Program-made: the position numbers and the translations under genes | NCBI GenBank assembly: GCA_023144005.1 | Contig: JAGLGN010000002.1 | Coordinates: 1-40,276, forward strand | Direction of reading: 5' to 3' | DNA length: 40,276 nucleotides | Origin: a bacterium | GTDB taxonomy: Bacteria > AUK180 | In this document: piece after piece, positions 1,240 to 35,963 of the stretch | Position numbering within the stretch: the stretch's first letter is position 1 | How the letters are laid out: every line of letters begins with the position of its first letter | Notes under the pieces: generated by a model | Databases searched by the model: none | Told to the model about the DNA's origin: nothing | The model's input: only the letters and a program-made list of their open reading frames with translations

Positions 1240-1385
1240 TAGGTGATAGGAGCACAAGTGACAAGAACACAAGTTGAGAATAATTATCCGAAATAAAATA
1301 CTTTTTGTGCTCTATCTTATAATTGTCAATTGTCAATTGTCCATTGTCCATTTCTCTATAGGCCTCTATTTATCAAACAGTACAC
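1212..1385. mobile_element. MITE-like element, about 174 bp, with 19-bp terminal inverted repeats
   Basis: The left end (1212-1230) reads GTGTACTGTTTCATAAATA. The right end read on the minus strand (1385-1367) is GTGTACTGTTTGATAAATA, 18 of 19 identical. A TA dinucleotide precedes the left end (1210-1211); the right flank is GG, so a TA target duplication is not preserved there. The interior holds no gene. It contains a run of heptamers (1319-1353) and a segment around 1250-1275 (agcacaagtgacaa) shared with the element at 26742. The right end overlaps the last five codons and the stop of lemA. TA flanks and this repeat type suggest mobilisation by an IS630/Tc1-mariner transposase, none of which is in the window. 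Confidence 0.72.
1319..1353. repeat. Tandem heptamer repeat (TCAATTG / TCCATTG)
   Basis: Five consecutive 7-bp units of the form TNNATTG: ATAATTG, TCAATTG, TCAATTG, TCCATTG, TCCATTT. The same unit recurs at 35482-35519. The array lies inside the MITE-like element, between waaA and lemA. Confidence 0.7.
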
Positions 1386-1950
1386 GGGGTACCTCTTTGG
1401 CCGCTTCGGGAGCTTTGAAATAATCCTCCTTGATCTGAAAATTGAAGAATCGTGCGATCATAACACCGGGAAAGGTGCGTACTGAAATATTATACTTTTC
1501 GAGCGAGCCATTGTATCTTTTTCTTGCCACCGCAATACGGTTCTCCGTACCCGAAAGCTCATCCATCAAATTCAAAAAGGTTTCATTGGCCTTAAGATCG
1601 GGATAGTTCTCCGCGATCGCAAAAAGCCGGCCTAAGGCGCTTTGCAATTGTCCGTTGGCCTGAATTTTCTCCCCCATGGACTTTGCGCTGATCATCATCT
1701 GTCTGGCATCCGCGATGCTGATGAAGATATCCTTCTCATGCTCCATATACCCCTTGACCGTGCTAATGAGATTAGGGATCAGATCGGCGCGGCGCTGAAG
1801 TTGATTATCGATCTCTGAAACTGTTTTATTCACTGATTCGTCAAGGGAAACTATTTTATTGTAAATGCCTGCTACCCAAAGAACTCCCAGAAGCACAATA
1901 ACGATCAATACGATGATCACCCAAAGAGCATTACCTTTTCTTATTTTCAT
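1366..1950 (-). CDS. lemA: LemA family membrane protein
   Basis: The 194-residue protein has one N-terminal membrane helix (about residues 9-28, a run of V/I/L) followed by the LemA helical domain. Visible signatures are LDESVNKTVSEIDNQLQRR, then LIPNLISTVKGYMEHE, and near the end FPGVMIARFFNF and YFKAPEAAKEVPRV, which match the usual family C-terminus. The ATG has a strong Shine-Dalgarno (AAGGAG) 7 nt upstream and overlaps the preceding gene's stop as ATGA. Molecular function is not established for the family. LemA and TPM-domain proteins commonly occur together, as here, and are thought to act at the membrane. Its last codons (VLFDK and stop) lie inside the terminal repeat of the MITE-like element 1212-1385. 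Confidence 0.92.
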   Translation of the reverse strand: MKIRKGNALWVIIVLIVIVLLGVLWVAGIYNKIVSLDESVNKTVSEIDNQLQRRADLIPNLISTVKGYMEHEKDIFISIADARQMMISAKSMGEKIQANGQLQSALGRLFAIAENYPDLKANETFLNLMDELSGTENRIAVARKRYNGSLEKYNISVRTFPGVMIARFFNFQIKEDYFKAPEAAKEVPRVLFDK

Positions 1951-2717
1951 ATTTTCTCCTTATCAATAAATTCTACCAGCCGCGCCCATTCATCTATCAC
2001 CTCAATAAATGACTTGTCGTCGATCTCTATTTTTTTGTTATTGTATTTCAAGTCATAGAACGATGATAGTTTTACAAGATCGAGACCATTGTTCAATTTC
2101 AAAAATTCATACATCTTTTTTCCCGAAAATTCCCGGATAACAGTTTGCGGGTCCTTTCCGGACAGCAAGCCGTTAAAGGCCTTCGGGTCCTTATTGAGTT
2201 GTATGTAAACCATCGCTTTTAATAGTATATTCAAGGAGGAGAGCGCTTTAGAAAGGACTCTTTTCAAAAGTGTTTTGCTGTGGGGGGAAAGAAAAATCTC
2301 TCTCATTCTGACATACTTGGCGCGAAGCTCCTCTTCAAGCCGAAGCCGGATATTGGACAGGTCAAGCTCCAGATCTCCAAGAACGTCCTTGCCGTATAAT
2401 TTGAAATGTCTTAACTTCATATCCAGATATTCGATCGGGAACACGTCTGAAGAACCGAGAAATTCCGAAACAGGCATCAGCAGGGGCATTGTCTTGCCCC
2501 TTTTCACCATATACCTTATTGTCTTCTGCCATTTCTTCAGATCGGCACCGGAAAGGTGAGTAACGATTATTCCGACATTGATATTGGGGACATACTCCAC
2601 TCCCGATGTGGTGGAGCCGTAGGTGAAGATGAATTCCACTTCTTCCAAAAGGCCGTCTTTTTCTATCCTTTCAATAAAATTCTGCAGGTAAATATTTACT
2701 TTCTGTTTTGAGATCAT
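1947..2717 (-). CDS. Nucleotidyltransferase-fold protein, probably catalytically dead
   Basis: The 256-residue protein begins like an MNT-type nucleotidyltransferase, with FTYGSTTSGVEYVPNINVGIIV at about residues 31-52. The Gly-Ser of the GSxxxG...DxD motif is present (34-35), but both positions of the metal-binding DxD pair are Asn (about 45 and 47). Catalysis by the usual mechanism is therefore unlikely. A second recognisable block, VFPIEYLDMKLRHFKLYGKDVLG (about 92-114), resembles the helical part that follows the NTase core in related bacterial proteins. No membrane segment or signal peptide is seen. The gene lies between the TPM-domain gene (9 nt gap) and lemA (4-nt ATGA overlap), so the three are almost certainly co-expressed. 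The role is unknown; a regulatory or scaffold function for the TPM/LemA pair is inference. Confidence 0.72.
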   Translation of the reverse strand: MISKQKVNIYLQNFIERIEKDGLLEEVEFIFTYGSTTSGVEYVPNINVGIIVTHLSGADLKKWQKTIRYMVKRGKTMPLLMPVSEFLGSSDVFPIEYLDMKLRHFKLYGKDVLGDLELDLSNIRLRLEEELRAKYVRMREIFLSPHSKTLLKRVLSKALSSLNILLKAMVYIQLNKDPKAFNGLLSGKDPQTVIREFSGKKMYEFLKLNNGLDLVKLSSFYDLKYNNKKIEIDDKSFIEVIDEWARLVEFIDKEKI

Positions 2718-2726
2718 TGTATGCTC

Positions 2727-3578
2727 CTACCAACTGCCCGAGGCACCGCCGCCACCGCTGGATCCGCCGCCGAAACCGCCGAAACCACCACTGGACCCGC
2801 CAAAACCGCTATCGTAATTTGAATAAAAATGACCCCTTCTTCCAGTATTATTGCCGCCTTCCGCTAATGCCGCCAAAGCGATCACCGCGCTGATGATCAG
2901 CCGTATAAAGATGGGTCCACCGATGAAAAATGAAAAAAAGAATATAACAACGAAATTAATGAGAAATCTTATCCCGGGTTTAAATTTTGCGAAGATGCCG
3001 TTCAATACCATGAGAATAAAGATAAAGATAAAGATCGCAAAACTGGAGAATCTGAGGGGTTTGCTTTCTTTCCCGTCGGCAACCTGGATATTCTCATCGT
3101 ATGGCTCTCCTTTTATCCGATCATATATTGTGTTGATCAGGGCGTAAACGCCTTCGTAATAATTCCCCGAACGGAAATTCTCAGAAAATAATTCCCTCAT
3201 AATGCGGCCGGAGTAGGAATCGTTTATCTGGCCTTCAAGGCCGTATCCTATTTCCATCCCGTATTTTCTATCCTGCTCTGAGATGACCAGAAGCAGGCCG
3301 TTGTCAGTGCCTTTTTTGCCTATTCCCCAACTGTTAAAAACATCGTGACGGAAGGTATCTATATCTTCTTCGTTAAGAGATTCAACGGTTAGAACAGCGA
3401 ACTCAATACCCGTTTCCGATTCCAGCTCAACCAACGCCTTTGCCAGACTTGAGATCTCGCGAGGCGTGAAAAGCGAGGCGTTGTCTGTGACAAAACCTAT
3501 GTATTGCGGGATATCTCCGGCGAAGATACCTATTGTCAAAATCATTGAAACAAGTAAGAATATCGCTTTCTTCTTCAC
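2727..3578 (-). CDS. TPM-domain (YgcG/DUF477) membrane protein
   Basis: The 283-residue protein has a signal peptide (about 1-20) and an extracytoplasmic TPM domain (about 25-165). Visible motifs are VTDNASLFTPREISSL, TGIEFAVLTVES, WGIGKKGTDNGLLLVIS and the final GNYYEGVYALI. Two to three hydrophobic stretches (about 180-245) follow. The C-terminus is a low-complexity Gly/Ser tail (FGGSSGGFGGFGGGSSGGG), the hallmark of YgcG-like proteins. The start is GTG with AAAGG upstream at a rather long 11-nt spacing. It begins 3 nt after the stop of the upstream glycosyltransferase and precedes the NTase-like gene and lemA. Biochemical function is unclear; TPM domains have been linked to membrane protein quality control and phosphatase activity in other systems. 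Confidence 0.88.
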   Translation of the reverse strand: MKKKAIFLLVSMILTIGIFAGDIPQYIGFVTDNASLFTPREISSLAKALVELESETGIEFAVLTVESLNEEDIDTFRHDVFNSWGIGKKGTDNGLLLVISEQDRKYGMEIGYGLEGQINDSYSGRIMRELFSENFRSGNYYEGVYALINTIYDRIKGEPYDENIQVADGKESKPLRFSSFAIFIFIFILMVLNGIFAKFKPGIRFLINFVVIFFFSFFIGGPIFIRLIISAVIALAALAEGGNNTGRRGHFYSNYDSGFGGSSGGFGGFGGGSSGGGGASGSW

Positions 3579-13039: not shown

Positions 13040-13072
13040 TAAAAAAGAGTTCGGGGGGCAAAATGCCCCCCG
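13040..13072 (-). terminator. Rho-independent terminator of rpoBC
   Basis: Downstream of the rpoBC stop (13081), the minus strand reads a hairpin with a 9-bp GC-rich stem (CGGGGGGCA / TGCCCCCCG, 13072-13052) and a 3-nt loop, then aactc and six T residues (13046-13041). This is the end of the whole ribosomal/polymerase transcription unit. Confidence 0.9.
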
Positions 13073-13080
13073 TAGATGTC

Positions 13081-16000
13081 TTAGTATTTGTTCTCTTCTT
13101 TGGAATCTTTCCAGGCAAAGTGACTGAGAAGATGACGCATTTCTTCCAGATTCCTATTAGTCGGTGAATCCATTACTTCCGATCTGAAGCCGGTTCCGGC
13201 AGGAATAAGATTTCCGATAATAATGTTTTCCTTCAATCCGCGGATATGATCTACACGCCCTTCCAGCGCGGCAAGGGAAAGCACTTTGATAGTCTCTTGG
13301 AATGATGCGGCGGAAAGCCACGAGTCGGTTTGAATGGCAACCTTGGATATACCCAGAAGCGTTTGCTCTGATTCCGGTTTTCTTCCACCCGACTTCTCTA
13401 ATCTCACCATCTCTTTCTGGAATAGTGTTTTGTCAACGATTTGCTCCGGCAGGAATTTCGAGTCGCCGATCTTAGTGATGCTGACCTTTGAAAGCATCTT
13501 GTTCACGATGATCTCAATATGTTTGTCATGAATAGTAATGCCCTGCAATTTGTAGATGGATTTTACCTCATCGACAATATAGCGGCGTACAAAATCTGCA
13601 CCTTTGATCCTGAGAAGGTCAAAGAGGTTAATAACACCTGTAGTTAAAGGTTCTCCCTGCTCAACACGGTCACCGTCTTTCACGATGATCTGCTGATTGA
13701 AGTTTATCTTGTACTTCTTTTCTCCGCCGGTAGGTTCAGTGATCTTGATATATACAGGATATGCGCCTCTGATCTTTTTGGTCTTGTCCTGATATATCTC
13801 AACTGTACCGGTGATCTCGGACAGGATCGCGTTCTCCGCAGATTTTCTGTGGCGTGCTTCAAAAAGTTCTTCGACTTTCATAAGACCGCCGGTAATATCT
13901 GTTTTTTCACTCTTCTTGATAACGACCTTTCCGAGGAAATCTCCGCGCTTCACTTCGTTACCCTTGGCAACGGTAATGTGCGTGGTATGTATCTCTTTTT
14001 CACCTTTTCCTACACCCTTCACGATCCTGGAAACCTCGATCTGATGCTCTTTCCCATTAATAATAATTCTGGGCTGAAGCCTGCTCGAAGTGACCATGGC
14101 GGGCTGAATAACGATCTTATCCGACTTCGTTTTTGTATCAGGAGAGAAGTCGATATTATGATACTCCACCTTTCCGGATTCCTCCGCAATAATGGGTTCA
14201 AAGTACATCGGCTTGACAGCAATAGGTGTTTTCTTCTTCAGCATCATTCCGTTCTTAATGAGCAATTCCGAACCGAACGGCACAGCATATCTTTCCAGCT
14301 CACGATACAATTTGACATTGTCAAGGTCGCTCATAAGGATCTTCGAAGTCCTGTTACCATCGATAATATGGCCCTCCGGGCAAATAATTTCTTTGGTCTT
14401 GGGATTCTTAATATCCTCGGCAGCGGTTTTGAAGATAATATTTGTGCCATGTTCATCCTTCACGATGCGAACCTCTTCCTTGATATCTGAAAGAATAACC
14501 AATTCACCGTCACGAGAAAGATTCAGATGCTTACCCTCAGAGTTCTTTTCCTTATTGTATTTCAGGCGGTACTTCATCTTCCCCTGAATGATTGAGATCT
14601 CATCGTATTTTTTGCCTTTATTGTCTTTGATATCGACGATCGTGCCTTGTTCGCTGAAAGTGATCGTAAATTTCTTGCCTGGGTAATTTGGAGAATTAAT
14701 GATCAGATTGAAGCGGTCAATGGTATATTGTTTTGTTTTTTCAACCTTTTTCACATTCTTGAAATCAGCATCGAGAAGTTTCTTCTCTATCTCGAACTGT
14801 TTGTAGCTCTCACCCTTTTCAAGAAGAAGAAGTTCGGCATGAATGATCTCCTCTTCACTCTTTCTGGAGGTAACACCGCCAATATGGAAGGTTCTCATCG
14901 TAAGCTGAGTGCCTGGTTCGCCAATGGACTGCGCGGCTATGATACCGACAGGAGAACCCATTTCCACGATCTTTTTCTTGGAAAGGTCCATTCCGTAGCA
15001 AAGCTGACAAATACCTCTTTCGGTCTGACATGTAAGCGGTGATCTCACTCTGATGCTCTCAATACCCGCATTCTCGATCTTAAAGGCTGCTTCTTTTGAT
15101 ATTATCTCATTCTGGCCTACGATCTTTTCACCGGTCTTTGAATTGATGACATCCTCGAATGCAACTCGGCCGTAGATCCTATGCGCTAATTGTTCTTTGA
15201 CGAACGGCGGACGGTTAAGAGGCATCACCTCGATCCCCAATGTGGTTCCACAATCATGTTCTTTAACGATAATATCATGTGATACATCCACCAAACGGCG
15301 GGTGAGGTAGCCCGATTCAGATGTCTTCAAAGCCGTATCGGCAAGACCCTTGCGGGCACCGTGAGCGGATATGAAGAATTCAAGAACATTAAGACCCTCC
15401 ATAAAGTTGGATTTGATCGGGATCTCAATGATCTCGCCGGACGGGTTTTCCATAAGTCCGCGAAGAGAGGCCAACTGTTTGATCTGCGTCTGCGAACCTC
15501 TGGCGCCGGAGTCCAGCATAATGAAAATGGGATTGAAGTGGGTTTTCTTATCTTTCGGATTACCCTTTTCCATCTTTTTGATCATCATTTCTTTCAATCT
15601 TTCATCCACCGAGGTCCATATATTGATTATGTTCTTTGATCTTTCAACATCCGTGATCTCATGTCTGGCAAAACTGTCATTTAGAGCGTTAACACCATCT
15701 TGGGCCTTCGCGAGAATGTCATTCTTCTGATCGGGAATAATGATATCCCACAATCCGAATGTTATCCCGCCTCTTGTAGAATAGAAGAAGCCGGTCTCCT
15801 TAAGATAATCAAGGAATTGTATAACATCATCTCTTTCAAGAATATCCCATGCATTGTTGATGAACTCTCTGATGTTCTTCTTGTTAATGGTCTTATTGAA
15901 GTATGGGAGCTCCTCATGCAGTCCGTAGTTGAACACTGCCCTACCGACAGTCGTACTGTGCCATTTCCCCTTGTAGAACAGCTCCACAGGCGTGTGCAGG

Positions 16001-19000
16001 CTCATTCGCTTGCTTACCTTGTCATTGTTGATCATGTCATATTCATATTGATAGAAAAGATCTTCAATGGAGTAGAATTTTCTTATGGCAACACCGGAGA
16101 ATTTTTTTTCTGCGGTCAGATAATACAGCCCAAGGATCATATCCTGTGAAGGAACGACTACCGGCTCTCCGTTCGAGGGAGAAAGAATGTTATTTATTGA
16201 CCATATCAGCATTCTGGATTCAAGCTGAGCGATTGGGGTCAAAGGAAGATGAACACCCATCTGATCACCGTCGAAATCAGCATTAAAAGCCGAACATACC
16301 AAAGGATGCAGCTGAATGGCAGAACCCTGTATCAATCTGGGCTTGAAGGCCTGAATACTCATGCGGTGAAGCGTGGGTGCTCGGTTAAGGAGTATGAGGT
16401 TCTTATCGTATTCATTCTCCAGCATTTTCTCGATCTCAACCGGATCGATATCCTTCGCTACGACACCCTCTGCCGCGACAAGCTGCTTGCTTCTTTTATT
16501 CTTCTCTCTTTCAATAAAGGTTTTGAAGAGTTCTCTCCCTATCTTGACGGGAAGCCCGCATTCGGAAAGTTTCAATTTCGGGTTGATGACAATAACTGCC
16601 CGGCCCGAGAAATCAACTCTCTTTCCCAGAAGGTTCTGACGGAATCGGCCTTGCTTGCTTCGGAGAAGCTCTGCGAGCGATTTCAACGGACTGCCGTTGG
16701 AACCCACTATGGCATTGCCTCTACGGCCGTTGTCTATCAGGACATCTACTGATTCCTGAAGCATTCTTTTCTCGTTTTTGAGAATGATCTCGGGGACATC
16801 GTCTTCCAGGAACTTCTTCAATCTGTTATTGCGATTCAACACTTTCCTGTAAAGATCATTGAGGTCTGCCGATGCGAATTTAGATCCTTCCAACGGTACC
16901 AACGGACGAAGGTCCGGAGGCAGTACCGGTACGGAATGCCAGATAACCCATTCAGGGAGATTTCCCGATTTTTTGATCTTCTCAAGAAGCAGAAGACTTT
17001 TCAACTGCTTAAGGTCATTTCCCTTAATCTTCTTGGAATCCCTGAATTTGCCTACACTGACCTGAAGTTCCTTGATCTTGTTTTCAATGTCAAGGCTCTT
17101 CAATTTTAAATAAATGGCCTCTGCGCCGGAAACCGCTTTGAAGCTGTCCCAGCCGCATTCCCTCATCAGATTTCTATATTCGATCTCATTAATAACATCC
17201 CATTGTCTGATCTTCGTGAGTTTTTCATCCATGACCTCGGTGACCACATAGGACTCATAGTAAATGATATTTTCGATCTGTTTGGTCTTGAGATCAAGTA
17301 TTGTAGCAAGCAGGGAAGCCAAAGATCCCTGGAAGTACAGAATGTTCGCGATCGGGGCAACCAATTTGATAATGCCCATATATCTTCTTCTCACATTCTT
17401 CTCAGTGATCTCGACACCGCATCGCTCACAGACCTGGCCTGCGTATTTTCTTCCCTTGTACTTTCCGCAAGAACATTTCCAGTCCCGTGTTGGGCCAAAG
17501 ATTTTTTCACAGAAAAGACCTTCTTTTTCCGGTTTGAAGCTCTTGTAATTAATGGTATCCGCTTTCTTCACCTCACCCACATAGCTGTTCTTTCTTGTAG
17601 CCCATTCCAGCATCTTTTCATTTGGGGCAAGACGAAGCTGTATATTGGCAATCTTCTTTGTTTTCGGATCTATTTCCCTGATAACATCAAAGCCCATGGC
17701 CTGCATTTCTTTTACAAGCACATTAAAGGCCTCTGGAACATTTGGAGTCATTGGGAATTTGTCCTTGATGATCGCTTCGTGGACCTTATTTCTACCGATA
17801 ACATCATCGGATTTGAAGGTGAACATCTCCTGAAGGGTATAGGCGGCGCCGTAGGCCTCCAATGCCCAAACTTCCATTTCACCGAGTCTCTGACCGCCCT
17901 TCTGAGCTTTTCCGCCCAATGGCTGCTGAGTTACCAGTGAATATGGGCCGGTTGCCCTTGCATGGAGTTTATCTTTTCCAAGGTGATTCAATTTCAATAT
18001 GTACATCACACCGACGGTAACTGGCTGATCGAAGAACTCGCCCGACACACCGTCCTTCAAGAACATTTTACCCAGACCGTCATCGCCGATCTTTTTCAGA
18101 TATTCGGAAATATCCTTTTCCGTGGCACCGTCAAATACAGGAGTAGTGAATTTCACACCCAACTGTTCCCCGACAAGACCAAGAAGTGTTTCATAGATCT
18201 GGCCTATATTCATACGTGAAGGCACACCAAGAGGGTTCAGGATGATATCTACCGGAGTGCCGTCGGCCATGAAGGGCATATCCTCGGCGGGGGCGATCTT
18301 TGAGATCACGCCTTTATTACCGTGGCGGCCTGCCAACTTATCTCCGATATCGATCTTTCTGATCTGGGCAATATAAACTACAACACTCTTTATTACACCG
18401 GAAGGCAGATCGTCACTTTTTATAATGGAACTTCTTTCCTTATCATAGGAATCCAACGACCGTTCCTTTGCAAATTCAAATTTTTCCTTCAGAATGGAAA
18501 GGTCCTGTGTCAAGACAAAATCTTCAAGGAAAATATCAAAGAGAGAGATCTTATTGTTCAGAAGTTTTGCGTAAACCTTCTTGTTGATCTTTGTCCCCTT
18601 TTCAATATTTCCGCCATTGAGATTCTTAATGGTCTTTGAGATCTCTTTTCCTTTGACCTTTTCATAAACGGTTTCCTTATAATTTTCTTCCATTTTATGA
18701 AGTTCAAGGTTGACCGCTCTTTCCAGTCGGGAAAGCTTCCAGTCCGTCTCTTTCTTGGTGATATCATCTTCCTCGATCTTCTTTCTTGAGAAGACCCTGA
18801 CACCAATAACTGTTCCGTATGTCTTTTCGTCGGCATAGAGGGAGGTGTTCTTAACATTACTTGCTTTCTTTCCGAAGATGATCGAAAGAAGCCTGTCTTC
18901 ACCTGAAAGTTCGGTTTCACCCTGTGGTGTGATCTTACCGACCAGAATATCCCCTGGTTTGATCTTTGTCCCGATCCGGATAATACCTCTTTCATCTAGA

Positions 19001-21480
19001 TGAGCGATCTTTCTAAGATCGATATTAGGGATATCCCCTGTTATTTCTTCACGGCCCAGCTTCGTAATGATCGCGTCCACCTTCGATTCGGAAACATGTA
19101 CCGAGGTCAGAACATCTTCTTTAACTAAACGGTCTGAAACGATGATCGCATCTTCGTAATTATAACCCTGCCAGGGCATGAATGCAACTTTAAGATTCTT
19201 GCCCAATGCAAGTGATCCGTGAGAAATAGACATTCCATCGGTAAGGAATTCGCCGACTTTGACGGCCTGTCCGACCTTGACGATCGGAACCTGATTCTTT
19301 GTCGTATCCTGATTTGATCTTCTGAATTTCTGTATCCTGAATTCTATATGTGAAATACCGTCGGAAATATCGGATTTTTTCAAAACGATACGTTCAGCGT
19401 CCACATATTCTATGACGCCGTCATGAGCGGCTATGAGCGCCGAATGTGAATCCTTTGCGACCTGTATTTCCATTCCGGAATTAACGATCGGGGGCTCCGG
19501 ATATAATAGAGGGACCGATTGTCTCTGCATGTTCGAACCCATGAGAGCACGATTTGCGTCATCATGCTCAAGGAAAGGTATCAGGCTTGAAGATAGTGAG
19601 ACCATCTGCATTGGTGATACATCGATAAATTCAACCTCTTCGGCTTTTCTGTAACCCACATCATATTTCAAGTGACAATAAACATATTTGTCCTGGATCA
19701 CCTGTTTATCATTCAATGTAACATCCGCGGAAGCGATGATCGAAGATTCTGACTCATCGGCGGTCTGATAAACTATCTCATCCGTGATCCTTCTATTTAC
19801 CACCTTTGCCACCGGCGTTTCGATGAAACCCTTATTGTTAAATCTGGCATAAGTGGAAAGATGTGTAATAAGGCCGATATTCGGGCCTTCCGGCGTTTCG
19901 ATAGGACAGATCCTTCCGAAATGTGTCGGGTGAATATCCCTGACCTTGAAACCTGCGCGCTTACGATTCAGACCACCCGGCCCCAATGCGGAAAGACGCC
20001 TGAGATGCGTCATCGTCGCCAGAGGATTTATCTCATCCATGAATTGGCTCAACTGACTTCTGGCAAAGAAATCATTTATACTGGCCTCAATATGTCTGGT
20101 ATGAAAAATATCAAGCACCGAATTTCCTTCGATGTCGTTACTCCCCAATTTCTCGACAACATTTCTCTTCTGCTTGAGCATTGAAGAACGGATAACTACA
20201 TCAAGCTGTTCATGCACCATCCTGACCCTTCTATTGGCCAGATTATCAATATCATCCGTAATGTCAAGACTCTCTCTGATATCAAGAAGCTCATTGATCG
20301 TGTTGATAACATCACTTTCGGTAAGAGTTAAGATGTCTTCGGAGACCTGCTCCTGCTGTTTCAATCTCTTATTGATCTGATATCTTCCCACATATGAGAA
20401 TGAATACTTCTCGGCGTTGAAGTAGAGGGCTTCAAAATAATTATCCGCCATCTGCTTGGAATATGAATAGCCCGGGCGCAATTTATTATATATGACCTTT
20501 CTGGCTTCATCTGTGTTTTTTGTAACATCCTTCTTCAGTGTATCTATGATGGTCGTCTGTGTGATCTTATCGGGATCTACGATCTCGATCTTCTTAACAT
20601 CTTCGGGGAATGATATCTCGAAATCATTCAAGTCATCGCCCGCATTAAGGATCACATCTCCTTTGGAGGTGATAACATCATCCACGACGATCATCGGGAC
20701 ACCTACTTTTCTCTTGAAGGTCTTGGCATTCACCTTCTTCGTTGCGTAGAACTTTCTCAAAATATCCGCGGTGGACATTCCGAATGCTCTAAGAAGAATT
20801 GTCCCGGGGGCTTTTTTCTTTCTGTCCAGAAGAACATAAAGAACCCTGAGGGTATCCATTGTGAATTCAAGCCATGAACCGTAATAAGGGATTATTGTGG
20901 TAGTAAAGAGCTTCTGGCCATTTATATCCAGTATGCCTTCCTGCTCGGTAAATGTAACGCCGGGGCTACGGTGAAGCTGACTGACCACGATCCTTTCGGC
21001 ACCATTAATAATGAATGTTCCCCTCTGAGTGATCATAGGGAAATTCATCAAGAAGATCTCATCTTCTTTCGACTGATAAGGTTTCATTTCACCGGAAACA
21101 TCGTCCTTATCGAGGAATGTTAATCTGAATTTCAACCTCAACGGACGGGAGTAGGTGAGTTTTTTATCCCTGCACTCCTCCTCCGTATAAATGGGACGTC
21201 CTAAAGAAAATCCCGCATATTCCAAGTGAACATTTCCCTTTACCGAAGTGAAAGGAAATAGCTCCTTCAATGTCTTATGCAGGGATATTTCAAATATATC
21301 TCTGGTTTGATAATCAGCATCTATATCTACTTTGAACATATGATCATTGTCGACAATGCTCATATATCTGTTGAAATACTTAAACTGGTTCTCGAGAAGA
21401 TTGCTTAAGGGAAGCTTTTCCCTGAACTTGCCAAAGCTGAATTCCTTAAATTCTTCAACTTTTAATCTGGTTTTTATCAT
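13081..21480 (-). CDS. rpoBC: Fused RNA polymerase beta / beta-prime subunit
   Basis: One uninterrupted 2799-residue chain contains complete RpoB and then complete RpoC. RpoB landmarks include the rifampicin region [13 protein letters not shown] (about residue 475), [17 protein letters not shown], the GYNYEDAI block and the C-terminal [18 protein letters not shown] followed by [15 protein letters not shown] (about 1250-1265). A linker of some 15-20 residues leads straight into the RpoC start ([23 protein letters not shown]), the first zinc site CSCG...CERC (about 1335), catalytic NADFDGDQM (about 1735), the second zinc site (Cys near 2077 and [11 protein letters not shown] near 2155), and trigger-loop segment [24 protein letters not shown]. 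No stop, start or ribosome binding site separates the halves. The ATG at 21480 (MIKTRLK) has AGGAAGG 5 nt upstream; the GTG at 21486 overlaps that site. It lies downstream of rplL, separated by a MITE-like element and a hairpin. Confidence 0.97.
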   Translation of the reverse strand: [2799 protein letters not shown]

Positions 21481-21500
21481 CTGCACCTTCCTAAATTACT

Positions 21501-21548
21501 AACGAAAAAGACAAAAACCTGCCTGTGCCTATAAGGTCAGGCAGGTTT
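21501..21548 (-). terminator. Terminator-like attenuator in the rpoBC leader
   Basis: The minus strand has an 11-bp stem (AAACCTGCCTG at 21548-21538 pairing with CAGGCAGGTTT at 21525-21515), and the loop can pair further (CCT/AGG). A T-rich tract, TTTTTGTCTTTTT, follows. It lies about 20 nt before the rpoBC start, so it would reduce read-through from rplL, as the attenuator at this position does in Escherichia coli. On the plus strand no T run follows. Confidence 0.75.
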
Positions 21549-21557
21549 AGCGATTAT

Positions 21558-21586
21558 AGCGTACTGTCTCATAAATACCATAACAA
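21558..21586 (-). promoter_or_regulatory. Promoter-like pair in the MITE end, reading towards rpoBC
   Basis: On the minus strand TTGTTA (21586-21581), a 17-nt spacer and TACGCT (21563-21558) occupy the same place in the terminal repeat as the pair in front of waaA. A TATAAT (21558-21553) overlaps the element boundary but has no well-placed -35. It could supply rpoBC with its own promoter; this is inferred. Confidence 0.35.
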
Positions 21587-21829
21587 TGGCTGATGCTATT
21601 TTCAATCCGTATTCAAGACGCGAGGAGCGCCGCATACCCACTGCGGTATGTAAGCAACAAGCAACGCAGAAGACGGAAAAAGAGCTTCAGCCCGAAGGGA
21701 ATCTCATCTTTGGTCAATTTCTTCATCTCTCTTCGCTTACGGACCACAAAGGGTACGCCGCGCTCATCGTTCGTTGAAATTGACTTAAATCCAAGCATTC
21801 CATTGTCGTGGTATTTATGGACAGTACAC
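21559..21829. mobile_element. MITE-like element, 271 bp, between rplL and rpoBC
   Basis: The left end (21559 on) reads GCGTACTGTCTCATAAATAC and continues CATAACAATGG. The right end on the minus strand (from 21829) reads GTGTACTGTCCATAAATACC and continues ACGACAATGG: about 30-bp inverted repeats with few mismatches and one gap. TA dinucleotides flank both ends (21557-21558 and 21830-21831), as expected for a TA target duplication. A 61-codon reading frame on the minus strand (21798-21613) is present, but it runs into the repeat and has no recognisable domain. I treat the element as non-coding and non-autonomous. Confidence 0.8.
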
Positions 21830-21852
21830 TAGAAAACAAACCCTTAAGAAAC

Positions 21853-22236
21853 TTACTGAATCTCAACTAATGCGCCGGCTTCTTCCAATTTCGCGGCGAT
21901 CTCAGAAGCCTCTGACTTGGAGATCTTTTCTTTTACGGGTTTTGGTGATTCGTCGACCAATGCTTTCGCACTCTTAAGATCCAAACCTGTAATGTCCTTT
22001 ACGATCTTGATCACGGGGATCTTCTTGTCGCCCGGCTCTTTAAGGATAACATCGAATTCTGTCTGCTCAGCTTCTTCTGCTTCCGGTGCAGCACCTGCGG
22101 GTGCCGCTGCTACGGCCATTGAGGCCATTGCGGTAACATCGAATTTTTCTTCGAGTTCCTTTACTAGATCGTTCAATTCCATAACCGTCATTTTCTCGAT
22201 AAATTCAATGACCTGTTCTTTTGTGATAGTTGCCAT
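21853..22236 (-). CDS. rplL: 50S ribosomal protein L7/L12
   Basis: The 127-residue protein has the N-terminal dimerisation/L10-binding helices ([29 protein letters not shown]), an Ala-rich hinge ([18 protein letters not shown], about 42-60) and the C-terminal factor-binding domain with [25 protein letters not shown]. It forms the stalk that recruits elongation factors. GGAGG precedes the ATG, and the gene starts 13 nt after rplJ. Its stop is 22 nt from the MITE-like element that separates it from rpoBC. Confidence 0.97.
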
Positions 22237-22249
22237 TTTATCCTCCTAA

Positions 22250-22768
22250 TTATTTCTTTTTTTCCGAAACTTGCTTCAATACTGCAACGAGATCTCTCTG
22301 ATTTGCCTTCAACACACCAATAAATCTTGTTAGAGGTGAGTTAAGAACATACAGGAGTCTGCCCAGTAATTCGTCTTTGCTCGGTATTTTTGAAAGTTCT
22401 GCAATTTCTTCTTCGCCAAGGATGCGGTCAATATAGAATCCGCCCTTGATCTTGAAGGTTTCATTTTCCTTTTCCCATTTCTTCAAAGCCTTTGCAACAC
22501 CGGTGGGATCTTCGCCGATAAAAACGAATCCGGTGGTGAGTCTGGTAAATTCCTCGATCTCGGTAGGCATATTATTATCTTTTGCGGCGATCTTGAAAAG
22601 ACGGTTCTTGAAAACCTTGTAAATTCCGCCCTTTTCTCTGATCTCTCTTCTGAACAGGATGGTCTTGTTCGCATCCAATCCCGTAAAATCAACAAAAAAG
22701 ACGTTCCCTTTTTCGCCGAGGATCTCACTGATGAGTTTTACATCTTCTATTTTCTTTGCATTTGCCAT
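22250..22768 (-). CDS. rplJ: 50S ribosomal protein L10
   Basis: The 172-residue protein follows rplA and precedes rplL, the invariant order. It has the L10 core FFVDFTGLDANKTILFRREIREKGGIYKVFKNRL and a C-terminal L7/L12-binding helix (LLYVLNSPLTRFIGVLKANQRDLVAVLKQV). The ATG at 22768 is preferred to the GTG one codon earlier because AGGGGG is 5 nt upstream of the ATG. The ribosome binding site overlaps the rplA stop. Confidence 0.95.
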   Translation of the reverse strand: MANAKKIEDVKLISEILGEKGNVFFVDFTGLDANKTILFRREIREKGGIYKVFKNRLFKIAAKDNNMPTEIEEFTRLTTGFVFIGEDPTGVAKALKKWEKENETFKIKGGFYIDRILGEEEIAELSKIPSKDELLGRLLYVLNSPLTRFIGVLKANQRDLVAVLKQVSEKKK

Positions 22769-22777
22769 CACTGCCCC

Positions 22778-23476
22778 CTAAAGAATAACATTACTGGGGT
22801 CCACCTTGATGCCGGGGCCCATAGTAGAACTAAGATAAAGGGATCTCAAATACACTCCCTTCAATGTAGCAGGCTTTGCCTTAACGATCTCCTTGTGAGC
22901 AGCGATAAAGTTTTCTTTGATCTTATCATTGTCGAAAGAGATCTTTCCGAGGGGTAGATGCATATTGCCCAATTTGTCGACCTTATACTCGATCTTCCCG
23001 GCTTTGAACTCTGTGACTGCTTTGGAGATATCCTTGGTCACCGTTCCCAATTTGGGATTAGGCATCAGGCCTCTGGGGCCCAGGATCCTGGCTACTTTAC
23101 TGATATTGCGCATCATATCCGGCGAAGCGACAACAATATCAAATTCCAGAAAGTTCTCCTTCTGGATCTTCTCGATGATATCATCTCCACCTACAATATC
23201 AGCACCTGCGTCTTCTGCTATTTTTACATTTTCACCGGATGTGATAACACAGACCTTAACGACCTTTCCGGTACCGGCGGGTAAACTCAGGGTTCCCCTC
23301 ACCATTTGCTCCGCGTATTTAGGGTCTACGCCCAGATTCGCGTGGTATTCCACGGTTTCATCGAATTTTACCTGGTGGAATTTCTTCAAAAGCTCAATTG
23401 CCTCATCAAGCGGGTATGCCTTCTCACTGTCGATCTCGCTTTTGTAGGTCTTTACTCTTTTTGACATTCTCTTCAT
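22778..23476 (-). CDS. rplA: 50S ribosomal protein L1
   Basis: The 232-residue protein has the L1 features KFDETVEYHANLGVDPKYAEQMVRGTLSLPAGTGK at the N-terminus, GADIVGGDDIIEKIQKENFLEFDIVVASPDMM in domain II, and ILGPRGLMPNPKLGTVT, the most conserved motif. The ATG at 23476 (MKRMSKR) has GGAG 6 nt upstream. It starts 9 nt after rplK and is followed by rplJ. In many bacteria L1 represses translation of this mRNA; no binding structure was identified here. Confidence 0.97.
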   Translation of the reverse strand: MKRMSKRVKTYKSEIDSEKAYPLDEAIELLKKFHQVKFDETVEYHANLGVDPKYAEQMVRGTLSLPAGTGKVVKVCVITSGENVKIAEDAGADIVGGDDIIEKIQKENFLEFDIVVASPDMMRNISKVARILGPRGLMPNPKLGTVTKDISKAVTEFKAGKIEYKVDKLGNMHLPLGKISFDNDKIKENFIAAHKEIVKAKPATLKGVYLRSLYLSSTMGPGIKVDPSNVIL

Positions 23477-23485
23477 AAGATACTC

Positions 23486-23920
23486 CTACACCTTCTCCAC
23501 AATTTCGATACCCATGCTTCTTGCCGTTCCCATGATGATCTTCATCGCAGCGTCAATGTCATTGGCATTAAGGTCTACCATCTTTCTCTCTGCGATCTGT
23601 CTAACATCATCCAAAGTAACCTGGCCTATCTTGACGAGATTGGGCTCACCGGATGCTTTTACGATACCGGCGGCTTTCTTCAACAATACTGATGCGGGCG
23701 GCGTCTTCAAAATAAAATCAAACGAGCGGTCTCTGTAAACACTGATAACCGCTGGAATGATCAAGCCTGCCTGGTCCTTCGTTCTTTCGTTGAAGGCATT
23801 ACAGAATTGCGGAAGAGGTACCCCGTGAGGACTCAATGAAGGTCCGATAGGCGGTGCCGGCGTAGCTTTTCCGGCGGGAATGTGCAATTTAATTACTGCT
23901 ACTACCTCTTTTCTTGCCAT
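23486..23920 (-). CDS. rplK: 50S ribosomal protein L11
   Basis: The 144-residue protein shows the N-terminal proline-rich [20 protein letters not shown] and C-terminal rRNA-binding features ([44 protein letters not shown]). The segment that is GPALGQHGVNIMEFCKAFN in most bacteria reads [19 protein letters not shown] here, an uncommon version of the hinge/factor-binding loop. It lies between nusG (10 nt) and rplA (9 nt), the usual order, and helps form the GTPase-associated centre of the ribosome. Confidence 0.96.
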
Positions 23921-23930
23921 CTAATACTCC

Positions 23931-24599
23931 TTAGATCTTTTCTACTTCTTCAAAGGCGATCGTAACGGGGGTCAATCTACCGAAGATGGAGATCATTATC
24001 TTCAATTGAAGCTTCTCTTCATATACATCCGAGATCTCTCCAATAAAATCGGTAAAAGGCCCTTTAACAACCTTTACTTTATCGCCAAGAGAAAAGGAGA
24101 AACTCCTCTTCTCTTTGCTTCTCTTCTTCACTTTGAAAATCCTCAAAAGTTCAGAAGGTAAAACTGGGATTGGAATATGTCCCTGCTTCGTCCCTACAAA
24201 GTCGATCACACCGTTTACCTGCCGCATCTGATACCAAAGAGAGAGATTTGTCTCTTCTCCGTCCTCAGAGGACATGATGGTCTTGATCTTTATAAGGAGA
24301 TAGCCGGGATAGAGCTTGCGGCTCTTTTCTTCCTTAATCCCTTTATTAATCTCATAATAATTTACTTCCGGCAGAAGGATATGATAAATTTCATTTTCCA
24401 GGTGATTATCTTCTACGTATTGCACGATACGGTCTCTCACCTTCTCTTCCTGAGTGGTAAGTACATTAAGAAAATACCAGGAGAAGCCCTCGTCTTCCTT
24501 CAGGAAGATCTGACGAAGCGCTTCTAATTCTTCAAGTTCCCGCTTTTCGGCTTCTTCGGGTGTAACTTCAATGTTGTTGTTCTTTACTTCTTCGTTCAT
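23931..24599 (-). CDS. nusG: Transcription termination/antitermination protein NusG
   Basis: The 222-residue protein has an acidic N-terminal extension (about 1-38), the NGN domain starting WYFLNVLTTQEEKVRDRI and including KLYPGYLLIKIK, and a C-terminal KOW domain (LGDKVKVVKGPFTDFIGEISDVYEEKLQLKIMISIFGR). The NGN core carries an internal stretch around EDGEETNLSLWYQMR, where relatives have a short loop before VNGVIDFVG. It binds RNA polymerase and links it to Rho or to ribosomes. It starts 1 nt after secE's stop with no obvious Shine-Dalgarno, so translation probably depends on coupling. Confidence 0.94.
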   Translation of the reverse strand: MNEEVKNNNIEVTPEEAEKRELEELEALRQIFLKEDEGFSWYFLNVLTTQEEKVRDRIVQYVEDNHLENEIYHILLPEVNYYEINKGIKEEKSRKLYPGYLLIKIKTIMSSEDGEETNLSLWYQMRQVNGVIDFVGTKQGHIPIPVLPSELLRIFKVKKRSKEKRSFSFSLGDKVKVVKGPFTDFIGEISDVYEEKLQLKIMISIFGRLTPVTIAFEEVEKI

Positions 24600-24600
24600 A

Positions 24601-24798
24601 CTACAATGTTTTTATCAGCCATGTTACAAGAATCTGGAAGCCCTGATCGACTACGGCGAATATTATCGCTAATATCAAACTCACCACAAGGATCAAAATA
24701 CTGTGACTTCCCAGCTCTTTGCGCGAAGGCCAGGTAATCCTCTTTGCTTCTGCCTTTTCAATTTTGTAAAAATTCTTTATCTTTTCAATCATTCCCAT
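24601..24798 (-). CDS. secE: Preprotein translocase subunit SecE
   Basis: A 65-residue single-spanning protein: a short cytoplasmic amphipathic part with EKAEAKRITWPSRKEL (the conserved WPSR motif), then one membrane helix (HSILILVVSLILAIIFAVVDQGF). AAGGAA precedes the ATG. Position between tRNA-Trp and nusG is the common arrangement. SecE clamps the SecY channel. Confidence 0.95.
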   Translation of the reverse strand: MGMIEKIKNFYKIEKAEAKRITWPSRKELGSHSILILVVSLILAIIFAVVDQGFQILVTWLIKTL

Positions 24799-26707: not shown

Positions 26708-26735
26708 ATTATACGCGATTTTTGAAAAATGTCAA
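26708..26735 (-). promoter_or_regulatory. Main promoter of the tRNA-tuf-ribosomal-rpoBC unit
   Basis: On the minus strand TTGACA (26735-26730), a 16-nt spacer and TATAAT (26713-26708), both perfect consensus hexamers, lie about 45 nt upstream of tRNA-Thr(UGU). A MITE-like element begins about 7 nt beyond the -35. Confidence 0.88.
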
Positions 26736-35529: not shown

Positions 35530-35618
35530 TGGTGCCGGGAGTCGGACTTGAACCGACACGGGACATAAGTCCCGAGGGATTTTAAGTCCCTTGCGTCTGC
35601 CAATTTCGCCATCCCGGC
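35530..35618 (-). tRNA. trnL: tRNA-Leu (UAA)
   Basis: An 89-nt class II tRNA on the minus strand: acceptor GCCGGGA/TCCCGGC, anticodon stem GGGAC/ATCCC around TTAAA (anticodon TAA), long variable arm (cgggacttatgtcccg) and T arm GTCGG-TTCAAGT-CCGAC. CCA is encoded. Last RNA of the cluster. Confidence 0.95.
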
Positions 35619-35630
35619 TAGATGTAAGAA

Positions 35631-35705
35631 TGGAGGCGGCAACCCGATTTGAACGGGTGAATAGCGATTTTGCAGACCGCCGCCTTACCACTTGGCTATG
35701 CCGCC
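35631..35705 (-). tRNA. trnC: tRNA-Cys (GCA)
   Basis: Minus strand: acceptor GGCGGCA/TGCCGCC, D arm GCC/GGC, anticodon stem GCGGT/ATCGC with loop CTGCAAA (anticodon GCA), T arm ACCCG-TTCAAAT-CGGGT. Discriminator T and CCA are encoded. Confidence 0.94.
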
Positions 35706-35717
35706 TCTAAATAAAAA

Positions 35718-35794
35718 TGGTGGGCGATACTGGACTCGAACCAGTGACCCCTACGATGTCAACGTAGTACTCTAACCAGCTGAGCTAATCGCCC
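35718..35794 (-). tRNA. trnV: tRNA-Val (GAC)
   Basis: Minus strand: acceptor GGGCGAT/ATCGCCC, D arm GCTC/GAGT, anticodon stem TACGT/ATGTA-type around TTGACAT (anticodon GAC), T arm ACTGG-TTCGAGT-CCAGT. Discriminator A and CCA are encoded. Confidence 0.94.
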
Positions 35795-35808
35795 ATTGAA
35801 AGGAAAAG

Positions 35809-35881
<73 letters not shown>

Positions 35882-35888
35882 ATATTAC

Positions 35889-35963
35889 TGGAGCGGGTGA
35901 CCGGACTTGAACCGGCGACAGTCTGCTTGGCAAGCAGATACTCTACCACTGAGTTACACCCGC
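35889..35963 (-). tRNA. trnG: tRNA-Gly (GCC)
   Basis: Minus strand: acceptor GCGGGTG/CACCCGC, anticodon stem CTGCT/AGCAG with loop TGCCA (anticodon GCC), T arm GCCGG-TTCAAGT-CCGGT. Discriminator T and CCA are encoded. First RNA of this cluster, about 6 nt after the predicted transcription start. Confidence 0.95.

What the first reader, a model, noticed from the sequence alone, without database searches (positions are those of the whole stretch)
13081..21480. RNA polymerase beta and beta-prime are a single fused 2799-residue protein
Seen: a continuous frame carries every RpoB landmark and then every RpoC landmark with only a short linker (around DNA 17640-17690) and no internal stop, start or ribosome binding site. 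Known: natural rpoB-rpoC fusions are established in Helicobacter/Wolinella relatives and Wolbachia. Inference: the ribosomal gene order and neighbours here do not look like those groups, so this could be an independent fusion and a useful lineage marker.
Basis: partly seen in the sequence, partly recalled or inferred. Interest (0 to 1): 0.78.

Follow-up and report, generated by a model that had tools for sequence, protein, structure and literature searches.

The report
Fused RNA polymerase beta–beta-prime gene
In this little-known bacterial phylum the two largest parts of RNA polymerase are made as one long protein, as in Helicobacter, but from a separate fusion event, and genome searches show at least six other candidate phyla where nearly all sampled members do the same.

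Summary
The fusion is real. One open frame on the MINUS strand (13081-21480, 2799 aa from ATG; 2801 from an upstream GTG) holds complete RpoB then complete RpoC, with about six residues between them (DPKTKK, 17653-17670). The same fused frame, with in-frame length changes and mostly third-position differences, is in all five genomes of this phylum where the locus is assembled (two families), so it is not an assembly error. It is the only RpoC locus in the genome. It does not descend from either known fusion: grouping with fused Campylobacterota is rejected (AU p=2e-8), as is grouping with Alphaproteobacteria (p=2e-4; Wolbachia itself not sampled). A scan of 386 genomes, one to three per phylum, found the fusion in at least six further candidate phyla, in all or nearly all members whose assembly spans the junction. 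Parsimony needs about 5 changes; a single origin is rejected (p=2e-4). Whether this phylum shares its fusion with the G130 or G044 phylum is unresolved (long branches). Likely mechanism: loss of one stop codon in an operon where rpoC is often already in frame, joining two strands that a moderate-confidence model folds as a hairpin. A known kind of feature; a new, phylum-wide instance.

The parts
13081..21480 (-). rpoBC: fused RNA polymerase beta-beta' gene, 2799 aa (ATG start; GTG two codons upstream at 21486)
17671..21480 (-). RpoB (beta) part, to strand FDVIREI
   Evidence: TIGR02013 residues 15-1268; strand in AF2 models
17653..17670 (-). junction turn DPKTKK (residues 1273-1278 of the 2801 numbering)
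13084..17652 (-). RpoC (beta') part, from strand IANIQLRL; contains NADFDGD active-site motif
   Evidence: TIGR02386 residues 1282-2769; PF04997 16630-17658
13052..13072 (-). strong intrinsic-terminator-like hairpin just after the stop of rpoBC
   Evidence: 9 pairs, 8 GC, T-rich tail
21487..21852 (-). 366-bp rplL-rpoBC intergenic region with a hairpin plus T-run (AACCTGCC...GGCAGGTTTTTGT), possible attenuator, and SD before rpoBC
   Evidence: sequence; function inferred
21853..24599 (-). rplL, rplJ, rplA, rplK, nusG directly upstream
24601..24798 (-). secE
   Evidence: translation, by eye

Best explanation
The gene encodes a single-chain beta-beta' large subunit of RNA polymerase that replaces separate RpoB and RpoC. 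It is translated once from the rplL-proximal start and should assemble with alpha2 and omega (and sigma) like an ordinary polymerase, with beta and beta' always 1:1. It arose by loss of the stop codon between adjacent, in-frame rpoB and rpoC; the leftover beta tail and beta' leader were then trimmed to a six-residue turn. The last strand of beta and the first of beta' now form one hairpin instead of a contact between two chains. Fusion, conservation and separation from the known Campylobacterota fusion are shown; the stop-loss route, the hairpin and ordinary polymerase function are inferred.
For: Single open frame with complete RpoB and RpoC. One RpoC locus in the genome. Same fusion in G002, G003, G004 (2794-2804 aa) and G005 of the other family (fused frame runs to the contig end). 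Around the junction, differences fall on codon positions 1/2/3 as 16/8/65 (G004) and 16/10/63 (G002), and length changes are in frame, so the linker is translated in this frame. No start codon near the beta' N-terminus in G005. Both AF2 models give strands FDVIREI and IANIQLRL around DPKTKK; block-mean pLDDT about 60-76 and 79-81 there. In the listed matches, 112 of 345 unfused genomes have rpoC in frame with rpoB, 57 with a single stop in the matched stretch (my count). AU test rejects grouping with fused Campylobacterota and Alphaproteobacteria.
Against: No protein, transcript or read data; proteolytic processing cannot be excluded. AF2 models are weak overall (mean pLDDT 54-55) and the fold search gave nothing significant. 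An earlier test with only one Campylobacterota row did not reject grouping (p=0.12). The position of this phylum in the tree is unstable, so the origin of its fusion relative to other candidate phyla is open.
Confidence: 0.87

Rival explanations
1. The fusion is shared by descent with another fused candidate phylum (G130 phylum, to which the NCBI-named 'Omnitrophota' contig L072 belongs by tree, or G044 phylum), so it is not independent of those.
For: AU tests do not reject it: p=0.42 with G130 phylum, p=0.23 with G044 phylum. Two models join own with G130/G267 (SH-aLRT 99 and 90); G005 alone goes to G044/G189 (90).
Against: Without own, G130/G267/L072 move to the G119+G223 clade (92), which is how long-branch attraction behaves. 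The full tree puts own beside unfused G023 (0.96). One clade of all fused candidate phyla is rejected (p=2e-4).
Confidence: 0.4
2. It is the Helicobacteraceae (or Wolbachia) fusion, by descent or horizontal transfer of rpoBC.
For: Same architecture; NCBIfam fused-protein models hit. A sparse test did not reject Campylobacterota (p=0.12).
Against: With unfused Campylobacterota included: p=1.8e-8 and 2.9e-6; fused Campylobacterota nest in that phylum. With two Alphaproteobacteria p=1.9e-4. Scores are far below the fused-family cut-offs (2241 vs 5372; 2050 vs 4632). Junction sequences differ.
Confidence: 0.02
3. Assembly or sequencing error erased a stop between two ordinary genes.
For: Draft genome in 38 contigs; no reads to map.
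Against: Same open frame in four other genomes of two families, with in-frame length changes and codon-position bias; no room for an intergenic region or SD at the six-residue junction.
Confidence: 0.01
4. Beta' is also (or mainly) made separately, from an internal start or by proteolysis.
For: In-frame ATG/GTG codons lie near the junction in G000.
Against: Only weak SD-like matches near them in G000, not conserved; G005 has no ATG/GTG/TTG in the 75 codons before TINY. Cleavage is not testable here.
Confidence: 0.08

Closest known systems
Fused rpoBC of Helicobacter and Wolinella (Zakharova 1998, 1999; described in PMC1557499, PMC9696931)
   Same: Head-to-tail beta then beta' in one open frame; single chain.
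   Different: Not the same clade (AU p<1e-5). Junction 13 residues by BLAST ends here versus about 27 in G047. There it is confined to one family of its phylum; here it is in every sampled member with the locus.
Fused rpoBC of Wolbachia (cited in PMC7483510; NCBIfam PRK14844)
   Same: Same architecture.
   Different: Alphaproteobacterial; own phylum does not group with Alphaproteobacteria. Wolbachia sequences themselves not compared.
Fused rpoBC in other candidate phyla found here (G130 phylum with L072 'Omnitrophota'; G119, G223, G212, G044, G100 phyla)
   Same: Phylum-wide fusion, same architecture.
   Different: 2465-2691 aa in complete frames; several form one neighbourhood of the tree with junctions of about 14-36 residues; no report found in the papers searched.
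Engineered beta-beta' fusions (B. subtilis expression construct, PMC8266666)
   Same: One chain with a short linker (nine residues) used as a polymerase subunit.
   Different: Made by hand to avoid subunit mixing.

Membership tests
Natural rpoB-rpoC fusion (architecture class) | Complete RpoB and RpoC in one uninterrupted frame | tested here: met
Natural rpoB-rpoC fusion (architecture class) | Only copy of these subunits in the genome | tested here: met
   One PF04997 locus in G000; genome about 96% complete; RpoB not searched separately genome-wide
Natural rpoB-rpoC fusion (architecture class) | Fusion conserved in relatives under coding constraint | tested here: met
   5 of 5 assembled loci; codon-position bias
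Natural rpoB-rpoC fusion (architecture class) | Made and used as one polypeptide | not testable with these tools
   needs proteomics or western blot
Helicobacteraceae RpoBC (NCBIfam PRK09603) | Score over the equivalog cut-off | tested here: not met
   2241 vs 5372 bits
Helicobacteraceae RpoBC (NCBIfam PRK09603) | Groups with fused Campylobacterota in RpoB+RpoC tree | tested here: not met
   AU p=1.8e-8, 2.9e-6
Wolbachia RpoBC (NCBIfam PRK14844) | Score over the equivalog cut-off | tested here: not met
   2050 vs 4632 bits
Wolbachia RpoBC (NCBIfam PRK14844) | Groups with Alphaproteobacteria | tested here: not met
   AU p=1.9e-4 with two non-Wolbachia Alphaproteobacteria
G130-phylum ('Omnitrophota'-like) RpoBC | Forms one clade with it | tested here: inconclusive
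   AU p=0.42; behaves as long-branch attraction
G044-phylum RpoBC | Forms one clade with it | tested here: inconclusive
   AU p=0.23; G005 alone joins it at 90

The most novel reading that the evidence does not exclude
Single-gene RNA polymerase large subunits are a recurrent, phylum-level trait of bacteria: about five changes of state on the tree, seven candidate phyla (this one included) with no clearly unfused member seen, this phylum having trimmed the joint to a six-residue hairpin turn. Fusion is then a normal evolutionary state and not a curiosity of Helicobacter and Wolbachia.
Probability: 0.6. Interest if true: 0.62.

Novelty: new member of a known kind. Interest (0 to 1): 0.5.

Why it matters
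rpoB-rpoC fusion has been used as a rare genomic change and clade marker. Finding it as a near-universal trait of several candidate phyla, with a single origin rejected, shows the event is repeatable and must not be read alone as kinship. It gives several natural experiments on whether tethering beta and beta' affects assembly, stoichiometry or growth, and a practical warning: gene callers and marker sets that expect separate RpoB and RpoC may misjudge these genomes.

Tried and rejected
Assembly artefact: rejected by five genomes. Kinship to Helicobacteraceae: an early sparse test gave p=0.12; adding unfused and fused Campylobacterota gave strong rejection. Frame counts in named loci (79 of 79 in frame) were discarded because the search that fetched them seems to favour same-frame loci; the count is used instead. 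G094, which the junction search seemed to show as an open 2656-aa frame, is not fused (two ORFs, 1249 and 1405 aa). G124 (2028 aa) is a long unfused rpoC. Structure: models only moderate at the junction; fold search gave no significant hit. No fused chain was found among solved structures; the 60 best matches are all single subunits. Literature: searches of the held open-access library gave only Helicobacter/Wolinella and Wolbachia; Zakharova 1999 and Lane & Darst 2010 were not held.

Full report
What is there. The frame is on the minus strand, 13081-21486 (2801 aa from GTG) or 13081-21480 (2799 aa from the ATG that has AGGAAG upstream). NCBIfam rpoB covers residues 15-1268 and rpoC residues 1282-2769, both far over their cut-offs. 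PF04997 finds one RpoC locus in the whole genome. Upstream on the same strand lie tuf, tRNA-Trp, secE, nusG, rplK, rplA, rplJ and rplL; a strong terminator-like hairpin follows the stop. This is the usual bacterial order, so neighbours do not argue for or against independence (general knowledge).

Is it real. The phylum has seven genomes in the held collection. In the five with an assembled locus the frame is fused: 2804, 2804, 2799 and 2794 aa (stop to stop) in one family, and in G005 of a second family a fused frame running to the contig end. Between G000 and G004, differences near the junction fall 16/8/65 on codon positions 1/2/3, and length differences are whole codons. The junction is FDVIREI-DPKTKK-IANIQLRL, which leaves no room for an intergenic ribosome-binding site. 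In-frame start codons exist near it in G000 with only weak SD-like matches; G005 has no ATG, GTG or TTG in the 75 codons before the TINY motif.

How widespread. A profile of the junction was run on 386 genomes, which the sampling order suggests are one to three per phylum over about 150 phyla (inferred). Fused frames, checked by ORF extraction, occur in the own phylum and in those of G071/G212/G342, G081/G223/G352, G119/G256/G383, G044/G189, G130/G267, G100 and G047. Phylum-level searches show the fusion in all or nearly all members whose contig spans the junction: G212 phylum, G223, G044 2 of 2, G130, 35 genomes held, G100 3 of 3, G119 7 of 7 by frame length, one of them (G528, 1636 aa) taken as a contig end. 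Frames well below 2400 aa in these lists were mostly taken as contig ends without inspection; those of G391, G081 and G492 were inspected, and G492 does not reach the junction. The named contig L072 ('Candidatus Omnitrophota bacterium') is fused and groups with G130. In the phylum of G047 the fusion is in family f43 (about 2890 aa) and not in the other families sampled, which matches the published Helicobacter/Wolinella pattern; I take this phylum to be Campylobacterota (inference) and it serves as a positive control.

Origins. RpoB+RpoC trees of 130-144 rows need 5-6 changes of state. One clade of all fused rows is rejected (p=2e-4), as is one clade without Campylobacterota (p=2e-4). Own with fused Campylobacterota is rejected (p=1.8e-8 and 2.9e-6) and own with Alphaproteobacteria (p=1.9e-4). 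Own with the G212 phylum is rejected (p=9e-4), with G100 marginally (0.039); own with G119+G223 (0.064), G044 (0.23) and G130 (0.42) is not rejected. Own has a very long branch and moves with sampling and model: beside unfused G023 in the full tree (0.96), beside G130 in reduced sets, beside G044 when only G005 stands for it, beside G120 in another set. So independence from the known cases is supported, and independence from G130 and G044 is open. The AU tests used LG+G4 and share any long-branch bias of that model; several were chosen after trees had been seen.

How it works. The two AF2 models (mean pLDDT 54-55; junction blocks about 60-76 and 79-81) both give strands at 1266-1272 and 1279-1286 with a turn at 1273-1278. 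I infer that the last strand of beta and the first of beta' lie side by side in the ordinary enzyme, so joining them costs little; an engineered fusion with a nine-residue linker has been used (PMC8266666), and the H. pylori fusion is reported as not necessary for viability (PMC12718164). In the listed matches, 112 of 345 unfused genomes have rpoC in the same frame as rpoB, near the one in three expected by chance, and 57 show one stop in the matched stretch (my count), so one mutation could fuse them. This explains recurrence without a selective advantage; whether tethering gives one is untested.

Verdict. A real polymerase gene with a known but rare architecture, in a lineage where I found no report of it, and part of a wider pattern that weakens its use as a marker by itself.

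Noticed in passing
window 26708-26735 (-): Perfect 12/12 sigma70-type promoter match (TTGACA-16-TATAAT) upstream of the tRNA-Thr/Tyr/Gly/Thr-tuf cluster; may drive the operon that leads to rpoBC.
   Followed up: no
window 21487-21852 (-): 366-bp gap between rplL and rpoBC with a hairpin and T-run, resembling the rplL-rpoB attenuator of other bacteria.
   Followed up: no
window 17560-17610 (-), beta' N-terminus: Family f1 has a six-residue insert in the beta' N-terminus (WATRKNSYVGEVKK) absent in G005 and in the other phyla aligned.
   Followed up: partly
G130, G119, G223, G212, G044 and G100 phyla (L162, L157, L118, L117, L160, L158): rpoB-rpoC fused in all or nearly all sampled members whose contig spans the junction; L072 is a named 'Omnitrophota' example.
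   Followed up: yes
window 35530-35963 (-): Second tRNA cluster: Leu, Cys, Val, Phe, Gly.
   Followed up: no
window 1366-3578 (-): LemA-like protein near a protein with a glycine/serine-rich tail (TPM/YgcG-like), with a nucleotidyltransferase-like ORF between; identified by eye only.
   Followed up: no
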